A stretch of DNA of 64,000 nucleotides from Geothrix fuzhouensis. GTDB taxonomy: Bacteria; Acidobacteriota; Holophagae; Holophagales; Holophagaceae. Shown in pieces: positions 57,693-60,075 of the stretch. The translations under genes and the position numbers were made by a program. The stretch's first letter is position 1; each line of letters opens with the position of its first letter. The notes beneath the pieces were generated by a model. The model had not been told where the DNA came from. It ran no database searches and saw only the letters and a list, made by a program, of their open reading frames with translations. Where the stretch lies: NCBI RefSeq assembly GCF_024609325.1, contig NZ_JANHMQ010000002.1, positions 1-64,000 of the forward strand, read 5' to 3'.

Positions 57693-57905
57693 GCCACCTT
57701 TCCTTCAGCTGAGAGCACTACATCTGGGCCTTCAAATTGAAGGGACCGATAACTCATCTTGATAGAAAGTGGTGCTAAACCAGTTGATGTTTTGTTATTT
57801 AAATATTGGTAATAAAAAGTTTATAAATCGGATCGAATATTGCCCAAGGACCCGTTGATGTGATTGGACCGTTGTGCCCGTCAACAACAAATCCGAGGGG
57901 ACTTC
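57693..57905 (+). promoter_or_regulatory. AT-rich leader of the encapsulin operon
   Basis: The 213-bp gap contains an abrupt AT-rich stretch (57771-57845: TTGATG, TTATTTAAATATTGG, TAATAAAAAG, TATAAA) in otherwise GC-rich sequence. It is probably the promoter and regulatory region; TTATT/AATAA words would suit Fur/PerR-type binding, but no clear consensus is seen. A GAGGGG site precedes the first ATG. Confidence 0.5.
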
Positions 57906-58133
57906 ATGGCCTACGAGCCGAAGAACTATGAGCACTTGAAGGGCGGAGTCATGAAGGGGTTCAGCGACAGCCAGCTGGACCTGCTCCTGGTGTTGGATAG
58001 CTGGGAGCACGCCTTCATGGTGGACTACGGCATCAAGCGGCCCGAGTACATCAACGCCTTCATGGACAACATCAAGTGGAGTGAAGTGTCCCGGCGTTTC
58101 GATGAAGTGAGCGCCGGAGGAAGGAGACCGTAG
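57906..58133 (+). CDS. Internally shortened Fe/Mn superoxide dismutase-like protein
   Basis: The 75-residue protein starts MAYEPKNYEHLKGG...GFSDSQLDL, like the N-terminus of a Fe-SOD subfamily, and then passes directly into the SOD C-terminal signature LDSWEHAFMVDYGIKRPEYI and NIKWSEVSRRF (canonical D-x-WEHA-Y...DY...R..Y...F...NW). About 120 central residues of a normal SOD, including two iron-ligand His, are absent; the D and H of DxWEH remain. It is intact, with strong GAGGGG, and lies 2 bp upstream of the encapsulated ferritin gene. Confidence 0.8.
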   Translation: MAYEPKNYEHLKGGVMKGFSDSQLDLLLVLDSWEHAFMVDYGIKRPEYINAFMDNIKWSEVSRRFDEVSAGGRRP

Positions 58134-58135
58134 CC

Positions 58136-58477
58136 ATGAGCAGCGGATCCATTGAAACGGGACTGTCCAGCGAGGCCCTCAACATCCATCGGGCCCTCGC
58201 CAGCCTGCAGGAGGAGCTGGAAGCCATCGACTACTACCACCAGCGGGTGGATGTGGCCGAGGACGAGGCCCTTAAGGCCGTGCTGGCCCACAACCGGGAC
58301 GACGAGATGGAACACGCGGCCATGTTGCTGGAATGGCTGCGGCGCGCCCTGCCCGGGTTCGACCTCCAGCTGAAGACGTTCCTGTTCACCTCGGAGTCCA
58401 TCCCGGCCCTGGCGGGGGGGAGTAAAGCACCAGCAGCCAACAACGGCACGGGGTTGGGCTTGGGGCCGTTGAAATGA
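58136..58477 (+). CDS. Encapsulated ferritin-like protein (EncFtn)
   Basis: The 113-residue two-helix protein carries the EncFtn ferroxidase motifs EELEAIDYY (about residues 26-34) and DDEMEHAAMLLEW (55-67). A flexible Ala/Gly linker ends in GLGLGPLK, a typical encapsulin-targeting peptide. EncFtn forms decameric rings that oxidise Fe(II) inside the shell. The gene sits between the SOD-like gene (2 bp) and the shell gene (29 bp). Confidence 0.95.
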   Translation: MSSGSIETGLSSEALNIHRALASLQEELEAIDYYHQRVDVAEDEALKAVLAHNRDDEMEHAAMLLEWLRRALPGFDLQLKTFLFTSESIPALAGGSKAPAANNGTGLGLGPLK

Positions 58478-60075
58478 GCGGGCGTTAAGGCCCAGGAGGA
58501 GCGGTCATGGTCGACATACTCAGGCGTGAGATGGCACCCATCGTGGACGAGGCCTGGCAGGAGATCGAATTGCAGAGTTCGCGTCTCCTGAAAGGGAATC
58601 TCTCCGGCCGGAAGCTGGTGGATTTCAGGGGCCCCCATGGCTGGTCGTTCGCAGCCGTGAACCTCGGAAGGCTGGAGGTGGGCGCTGAAGATGCGGCGAC
58701 CGGCGTGGCCTGGGGCCTGCACAAGGTGCTCCCGCTGGTGGAGATCCGGGTGCCCTTCACCTTGAAGGTCTGGGAACTGGATGACGTGGCCCGGGGCGCC
58801 AAGAACCCGGACCTGAGACCCATGATCGAAGCCGCACGGAAGGTGGCGGTCTTCGAGGAGACGGCCCTCTACCGCGGGTTTGGTGGGGCCAGCATCCAGG
58901 GCATGCTCGAAGTCTCCAGCCATGCGCCGGTGCCTCTGAGCTCCGATCGAAGCAAGCTGACAGAATCGGTGGAACTGGCCCTGCTCGCCATCCAGGAGGC
59001 GGAAATCGGTGGGCCCTTCGCGCTGGTGCTGGGCACCGAGCCGTACAAGTGGTTGATGGCGGGGGAGCCCAGTGCCTACCCCTTGCGCGAGCGCATCAAG
59101 GCCCTGGTCACCGGCGGCATCCACTGGAGTCCGGTCCTGGATGGCGGCGCCGTGCTGTCGCGCCGGGGCGGCGATTTCGAGATGACCGTGGGCCAGGACG
59201 TGGCCATCGGCTACAAGATGCACACCGCCCGGGAGGTGGAGCTGTACTTCACCGAATCCTTCACGTTCAGGGTGCTGGACCCCGCAGCCGCTGTGGAGCT
59301 GAAATTGAAAGCAGCCGCTCGTTCTAAGTGAACGCGATCCAACCGGCCGTTCCGGCAGGGACTGGGGAAGGCTGATCTTCCGGGGGAACGCCGGGATGGC
59401 TTCCAGATCGTGGAACAGCTTGCCCATCACCTTGTGGAGGGACGCCTGGAGCTGGCGGTTGCGCCGATTTTGTTCCGCAGGCGGAAAGGCGGCCAGCTCC
59501 CGGCGGGCCCACAGCACGTAGTAGGTCTCCTGCCAGAGCGGCTTCTCCTCGCCGGCACGGATGACCCGCGCCTCCACCACGGCCGGGCTGGACCACCGGC
59601 CCACGAGGACCGAGCCGCCGATCCAGAAGGCGCTCTCCTCCACCAGCTCGTAGGCCCCGAGGCCCACGGCCAGTCGCGGGTCGTGGGCCAGCAGGCCCAC
59701 CCCCACGCCCCAGCCGACGCCGCTGGCGATGCCCCAGGCGATGTACTTGGCTCGCACTTCGCCCAGGCTGGTGATGGTGAGGTCCAGGCGCAGGTCCGCG
59801 GCCGGATCCAGGCGCAGGCCCCGGGCGGCGGCTTCTCCGCGCAGGTCCGCCTCGAAGGCCGCGCGCTGGCCCTCCAGGGCGGCCCGGCGCGTGGTGGGCG
59901 TGTCCACCTCCCCTTCAGGATCCTTCAGGCGGGCCAGCTTCCGGCTGTGGTCCTCGAGACGGACGGTCAGGGCTAGGGAAGGTGGGCCGTGCTCGAGTTT
60001 CAGGTCCGCCAGCGGCGATCGGCAGGCAAGACCCACCAGCCCGAGGGCCGCAAGCAGGAGGGCGCGGCCCCTCAT
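58234..60075 (-). CDS. Lipoprotein, unknown function, with anomalous C-terminal overrun
   Basis: ATG at 60075 gives a signal peptide with lipobox VGLAC and about 245 plausible residues (a Gly-rich helix pair GIASGVGWGVGVGLLAH, then ETYYVLWARREL...HKVMGKLFHDLEAIPAF). The frame then meets no stop and runs to 58234 through the antisense strand of the encapsulin gene (613 residues). Another frame stops at 59324, where such a gene would naturally end, so a frameshift near 59330-59400 is suspected. It starts in the stop of the DUF3999 gene (ATGA). Confidence 0.6.
   Translation of the reverse strand: MRGRALLLAALGLVGLACRSPLADLKLEHGPPSLALTVRLEDHSRKLARLKDPEGEVDTPTTRRAALEGQRAAFEADLRGEAAARGLRLDPAADLRLDLTITSLGEVRAKYIAWGIASGVGWGVGVGLLAHDPRLAVGLGAYELVEESAFWIGGSVLVGRWSSPAVVEARVIRAGEEKPLWQETYYVLWARRELAAFPPAEQNRRNRQLQASLHKVMGKLFHDLEAIPAFPRKISLPQSLPERPVGSRSLRTSGCFQFQLHSGCGVQHPEREGFGEVQLHLPGGVHLVADGHVLAHGHLEIAAPARQHGAAIQDRTPVDAAGDQGLDALAQGVGTGLPRHQPLVRLGAQHQREGPTDFRLLDGEQGQFHRFCQLASIGAQRHRRMAGDFEHALDAGPTKPAVEGRLLEDRHLPCGFDHGSQVRVLGAPGHVIQFPDLQGEGHPDLHQREHLVQAPGHAGRRIFSAHLQPSEVHGCERPAMGAPEIHQLPAGEIPFQETRTLQFDLLPGLVHDGCHLTPEYVDHDRSSWALTPAHFNGPKPNPVPLLAAGALLPPARAGMDSEVNRNVFSWRSNPGRARRSHSSNMAACSISSSRLWASTALRASSSATSTRWW
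58507..59331 (+). CDS. Encapsulin shell protein, family 1
   Basis: The 274-residue HK97-fold protein starts with MVDILRREMAPIVDEAWQEIE and continues LSGRKLVDFRGPHGWSFAAVNLGRL, as in T=1/T=3 encapsulins, and ends YFTESFTFRVLDPAAAVELK. It assembles into a protein cage that loads the ferritin-like cargo through its C-terminal peptide. AGGAGGAG precedes the ATG. On the opposite strand a long open frame of the next operon overlaps it. Confidence 0.95.
   Translation: MVDILRREMAPIVDEAWQEIELQSSRLLKGNLSGRKLVDFRGPHGWSFAAVNLGRLEVGAEDAATGVAWGLHKVLPLVEIRVPFTLKVWELDDVARGAKNPDLRPMIEAARKVAVFEETALYRGFGGASIQGMLEVSSHAPVPLSSDRSKLTESVELALLAIQEAEIGGPFALVLGTEPYKWLMAGEPSAYPLRERIKALVTGGIHWSPVLDGGAVLSRRGGDFEMTVGQDVAIGYKMHTAREVELYFTESFTFRVLDPAAAVELKLKAAARSK

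What the first reader, a model, noticed from the sequence alone, without database searches (positions are those of the whole stretch)
57906..59331. Encapsulin iron-storage operon with a SOD-like third gene
Three intact, tightly spaced genes (2 and 29 bp gaps, strong ribosome sites) encode a shortened SOD-like protein, EncFtn with a C-terminal targeting peptide (GLGLGPLK), and a family 1 shell. Shell plus EncFtn is known; the SOD-like gene as leader suggests superoxide/peroxide handling tied to iron loading. The operon has its own AT-rich promoter region.
Basis: partly seen in the sequence, partly recalled or inferred. Interest (0 to 1): 0.75.

Follow-up and report, generated by a model that had tools for sequence, protein, structure and literature searches.

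The report
Truncated SOD leading an encapsulin operon
A bacterium related to Geothrix carries a normal ferritin-in-a-shell iron-storage operon whose first gene is the leftover of a full superoxide dismutase that lost its middle 125 codons; relatives keep the complete enzyme there, so the three-gene operon is the real find and the small gene is damage.

Summary
In detail: three same-strand genes at 57906-59331 with 2- and 29-bp gaps encode a 75-aa SOD-like protein, EncFtn with a C-terminal targeting peptide, and a family 1 encapsulin shell. The interpretation changes. The 75-aa gene is not a special short SOD. It is a full-length operon SOD with an exact 375-bp in-frame internal deletion between two GGACCTG repeats, both still present in the closest relative (G015). 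All other SOD-bearing copies of the operon in the family encode a full-length SOD of about 200 aa (9 Geothrix genomes, one of them without the shell gene, plus three other genera). The window copy keeps 2 of 4 metal ligands and cannot be an SOD. The window branch shows 7 synonymous and at most 1 replacement change in the retained codons, so the deletion is recent, or the peptide is still constrained. The genome has two other full-length SODs. The conserved SOD-EncFtn-shell operon, with its own SOD clade and a paired upstream motif, appears unreported in the papers I could search. No operon SOD carries a targeting peptide, so SOD most likely works beside the shell rather than inside it. The remnant is ordinary; the operon type is a modest new variant.

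The parts
57731..57765 (+). Paired upstream motif TTCAAATTGAAGG-N10-TCATCTTGATAG, candidate operator
   Evidence: Found at about -175 in 8 of 10 Geothrix operons with 2-5 mismatches to the consensus, 0 of 300 shuffles as good in each; absent in G009 and G307.
57785..57845 (+). AT-rich stretch upstream of the operon, probable promoter region
   Evidence: Sequence; partly conserved with G015. No sigma-70 consensus match.
57906..58133 (+). Remnant of the operon SOD gene, 75 aa, with an internal in-frame deletion of 125 codons
   Evidence: Sod_Fe_C hit; alignment with full-length relatives.
57977..57983 (+). Deletion junction: single copy of GGACCTG, present twice in G015, 375 bp further apart
   Evidence: DNA alignment with G015.
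58136..58477 (+). EncFtn (encapsulated ferritin-like ferroxidase), 113 aa
   Evidence: PF22277 122.1 bits; solved homologues 3k6c, 5da5, 7oe2.
58451..58474 (+). C-terminal targeting peptide GLGLGPLK of EncFtn
   Evidence: Aligned tails of 12 relatives, mostly GLGLGNLK.
58507..59331 (+). Family 1 encapsulin shell protein, 274 aa
   Evidence: PF04454 267.9 bits, NF041155 275.7 bits; closest solved shell 7odw/7oe2, H. ochraceum.

Best explanation
This is a Holophagaceae-type SOD-EncFtn-encapsulin operon whose leader gene, a full-length Fe/Mn-type SOD, has lost its middle 125 codons in this genome by deletion between short direct repeats. The EncFtn and shell genes are intact and should still make an iron-storing nanocompartment: EncFtn oxidises Fe2+, the mineral is held in the shell, and EncFtn is loaded through its C-terminal peptide. 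In relatives the intact SOD is encoded in overlap with EncFtn and most likely acts in the cytosol, removing superoxide formed when Fe2+ meets oxygen and so limiting superoxide-driven iron release. In the window organism that role is lost or taken over by the other two SOD genes. Shown by sequence: the deletion, the ligand loss, conservation of the operon, absence of a targeting peptide on SOD. Inferred: mechanism of the deletion, activity of the parts, cytosolic role of SOD, take-over by the other SODs.
For: Exact 375-bp deletion relative to syntenic G015, flanked there by two GGACCTG copies. Full-length SOD with all four aligned ligands in every other SOD-bearing copy. Ligands H27 and H77 lost. 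A further early stop (CAG to TAG) near the end of the remnant. Low-confidence structure model for the remnant, pLDDT 69, pTM 0.45, no SOD-like strands. Two other SOD genes in the genome. EncFtn and shell intact with dN/dS of 0.30 and 0.09 against G015.
Against: The retained codons show few replacement changes (7 synonymous, at most 1 replacement on the window branch), which would also fit a constrained peptide. No reads or second strain were available to exclude an assembly error. The cytosolic role of SOD is inferred only.
Confidence: 0.8

Rival explanations
1. The 75-aa protein is a functional, selected mini-protein derived from SOD, for example a metal-binding or shell-associated helper of EncFtn.
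For: Open frame with a ribosome site kept; retained codons show at most 1 replacement against 7 synonymous changes on the window branch.
Against: Seen in one genome only; two of four ligands missing; low-confidence model; no targeting peptide; an extra early stop and replacements in the tail. A recent deletion explains the low replacement count equally well.
Confidence: 0.08
2. The deletion is an assembly or sequencing artefact and the organism has a full-length operon SOD like G015.
For: Unique to this genome; the retained codons look like those of a living gene.
Against: The junction has 7 bp of identity only, too little to mislead most assemblers; it is an exact multiple of three and the stop codon nearby also differs from G015. 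The other SOD genes are too different in sequence to have been merged with it easily.
Confidence: 0.1
3. In relatives the operon SOD is a second cargo of the shell or is bound to it, so that superoxide removal and iron storage share one compartment.
For: Tight linkage with EncFtn, overlaps of 4-20 bp; the operon-clade SOD of Geothrix was found only beside EncFtn, apart from G034 where it ends at a contig edge.
Against: SOD tails are not conserved and hold no targeting peptide while EncFtn in the same operons does; the tail overlaps the EncFtn ribosome site. G331, G378, G435 and G436 have EncFtn and shell without SOD, and G009 has SOD-EncFtn without shell.
Confidence: 0.15

Closest known systems
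EncFtn family 1 encapsulin systems (Rhodospirillum rubrum, Haliangium ochraceum)
   Same: EncFtn with a C-terminal targeting peptide followed by a family 1 shell; aligned ferroxidase residues E27, E57, H60
   Different: Those papers describe no SOD as leader gene as far as searched
Fe/Mn superoxide dismutase, Aquifex pyrophilus type (PDB 1coj)
   Same: The intact operon SOD of relatives aligns over 189 residues (E 5.7e-33) with all four metal ligands
   Different: The window copy lacks 125 residues including two ligands
IMEF encapsulin operons with a co-encoded 2Fe-2S ferredoxin
   Same: An accessory redox protein encoded with an iron-storage encapsulin (described in PMC11202242)
   Different: The ferredoxin carries a targeting-like motif and co-purified with shells; the SOD here carries none

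Membership tests
Fe/Mn superoxide dismutase (window gene 57906-58133) | Both N- and C-terminal SOD domains | tested here: not met
   Only Sod_Fe_C positions 64-102 matched; no N-domain hit.
Fe/Mn superoxide dismutase (window gene 57906-58133) | Four metal ligands (three His, one Asp) | tested here: not met
   D31 and H35 remain; counterparts of H27 and H77 of the G015 SOD are deleted.
Fe/Mn superoxide dismutase (operon gene of relatives) | Full length with four metal ligands | tested here: met
   About 200 aa; H27, H77, D156, H160 in G015 align with 1coj. Activity not testable here.
EncFtn | EncFtn-like profile | tested here: met
   PF22277 122.1 bits over cut-off 27; TIGR04535 120.3 bits, just under its cut-off of 125.
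EncFtn | Ferroxidase residues equivalent to Glu32, Glu62, His65 | tested here: met
   E27, E57, H60 by alignment; roles in PMC5012862.
Family 1 encapsulin system | Shell protein of the HK97-like encapsulin family | tested here: met
   NF041155 275.7 bits over cut-off 100.
Family 1 encapsulin system | Neighbouring cargo with terminal targeting peptide | tested here: met
   GLGLGPLK at the EncFtn C-terminus, conserved in relatives.
Encapsulin cargo (SOD or its remnant) | Conserved terminal targeting peptide | tested here: not met
   Tails of ten operon SODs and of the window copy vary and lack the motif.
Encapsulin cargo (SOD or its remnant) | Physical presence in or on shells | not testable with these tools
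   Needs purified shells.

The most novel reading that the evidence does not exclude
In Holophagaceae a dedicated, operon-specific SOD is a working part of the EncFtn nanocompartment (attached to or loaded with the shell), giving a combined superoxide-removal and iron-storage compartment; the window strain is a natural SOD-deleted version of it.
Probability: 0.15. Interest if true: 0.65.

Novelty: new variant of a known kind. Interest (0 to 1): 0.4.

Why it matters
EncFtn encapsulins store iron, but how the superoxide and peroxide made around iron oxidation are handled is little known. A bacterial family whose EncFtn-shell operon is often led by its own SOD lineage offers a direct test, with natural versions that have the enzyme (G015), lost it (window strain), lack it (G331, G378, G435, G436), or lack the shell gene (G009).

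Tried and rejected
(1) A conserved short SOD: rejected, no relative has one. (2) SOD as classical cargo: no targeting peptide. (3) Recent recruitment of the stand-alone SOD into the operon: rejected, operon and stand-alone SODs separate on a supported branch. (4) Regulon of the paired upstream motif in the own genome: three further matches with 3 mismatches, no convincing iron or oxygen gene behind them. (5) Sigma-70 promoter and terminator scans: none found. (6) SOD beside EncFtn outside Holophagaceae: none within about 1.5 kb at the 16 strong EncFtn loci of other families examined in the phylum sample, nor at two records of the plasmid collection; other phyla could not be sampled as genomes. 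(7) Papers: none with encapsulin and Geothrix; 12 with encapsulin, cargo and superoxide dismutase, of which only the iron-detoxification review was opened, where SOD appears apart from encapsulins.

Full report
Observation. Three + strand genes lie at 57906-58133, 58136-58477 and 58507-59331. Pfam and NCBIfam identify the C-terminal part of an Fe/Mn SOD, EncFtn, and a family 1 encapsulin. EncFtn ends in GLGLGPLK and carries residues (E27, E57, H60) that align with Glu32, Glu62 and His65 of the R. rubrum ferroxidase centre (roles in PMC5012862).

What the small gene is. I fetched the same operon from other members of the genus and family. The genus is Geothrix or very near it, judged from the named records among the relatives. 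In the nearest relative, G015, the operon sits between the same neighbours, but the first gene is a 202-aa SOD. Aligning the DNA shows that the window has lost exactly 375 bp. Both flanks of the loss carry GGACCTG in G015 and one copy remains in the window at 57977-57983. The protein is therefore residues 1-25 of the SOD joined to most of its last 52. Two of the four metal ligands (H27, H77) are in the lost part. A structure model of the remnant, with its relatives as alignment, is low-confidence and all-helical (pLDDT 69, pTM 0.45). A C-to-T change also ends the frame two codons early: G015 overlaps EncFtn by 4 bp, the window has a 2-bp gap. I conclude that it cannot be a working SOD.

How old is the loss. 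Over the 65 retained codons compared, the window and G015 differ by 12 synonymous and 3 replacement changes. Polarised with nine relatives, 7 synonymous and at most 1 replacement change fall on the window branch. With about 37.5 synonymous and 157.5 replacement sites, neutral drift along the whole branch would give about 29 replacements (my arithmetic). So either the deletion arose late on that branch (roughly its last sixth or less), or the peptide is still constrained, or the deletion is not real. A recent loss is the simplest reading.

The operon in relatives. Eight Geothrix genomes have complete SOD-EncFtn-shell operons (G001, G011, G012, G015, G017, G029, G249, G307), and G009 has SOD-EncFtn without a shell gene. 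Three genomes of other genera of the family (G427, G430, G438) also have SOD-EncFtn followed by a shell gene; in G427 the shell match is split between two frames, and in G430 the contig ends within the shell gene. G331 and G378 (same genus as G427), G435 and G436 have EncFtn and shell without SOD. SOD overlaps the EncFtn start by 4 bp in most copies compared (8 or 20 bp in two). Operon SODs and the near-universal stand-alone SODs of the genus fall on opposite sides of one branch (97/99), so the operon SOD is an old lineage of its own; in Geothrix it was found only beside EncFtn, except in G034 where it ends at a contig edge. Apart from G015, the genes around the operon do not match those of the window, so the operon has moved as a unit or its surroundings have turned over. 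About 175 bp upstream, 8 of 10 Geothrix operons (window included) share a paired motif, TTCRAAYTGAAGG-N10-TCAYTTTGATGG, which shuffled sequences never match as well; in the window it is at 57731-57765. The consensus was drawn from these same sequences, so the test shows conservation rather than function. It is a candidate operator; its regulator is unknown.

Function. Shown by sequence: an EncFtn-shell pair of the known iron-storage kind and, in relatives, a complete SOD encoded with it. Inferred: the SOD removes superoxide made when Fe2+ meets oxygen and so protects the store and the cell; that superoxide can release ferritin iron is established knowledge, not tested here. The tails of the operon SODs vary and lack a targeting peptide, while EncFtn in the same operons keeps one, so I place SOD in the cytosol beside the shell (about 85%) rather than in or on it (about 15%). 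In the window organism EncFtn and shell should still work, and two other SOD genes remain (C4, 79% identical to the G015 operon SOD over 190 residues; C1, 30% identical).

What is known. EncFtn encapsulins are well described (PMC5012862, PMC8346489, PMC11202242). The main text of the large survey PMC8346489 and of the EncFtn review PMC11202242 contains neither 'superoxide' nor 'dismutase', and no paper in the held library names encapsulin and Geothrix together. Subscription papers and supplements were not searched, so the operon may have been listed somewhere. I rate the operon a new variant of a known kind and the window's small gene an ordinary deletion remnant.

Noticed in passing
L004 1158-1917 (own genome, contig C4, beside the stand-alone SOD at L004 1819-2397): The 3' end of the stand-alone SOD gene is followed by 261-bp tandem units that each carry a copy of that 3' end (one 169-nt copy is 96% identical). 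Similar extra 3' ends lie beside the stand-alone SOD in several other Geothrix genomes (G133, G025, G034, G017, G016, G249, G292)..
   Followed up: partly
L053 (G009 contig C40, 10000-28000): The contig is a perfect inverted repeat with 8363-bp arms and no spacer, probably an assembly artefact; its SOD-EncFtn pair has no shell gene behind it, and no shell gene was found elsewhere in G009..
   Followed up: partly
window 57731-57765: Paired motif with a 15-bp near-palindrome CCTTCAAATTGAAGG at 57729-57743; conserved upstream of most Geothrix copies of the operon, regulator unknown..
   Followed up: partly
L118 4728-5530 (G427) and L107 (G435): Shell gene match split into two frames in G427, and an in-frame stop counted in the match in G435 (which may lie at the gene's end): possible decay or sequencing error..
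   Followed up: no
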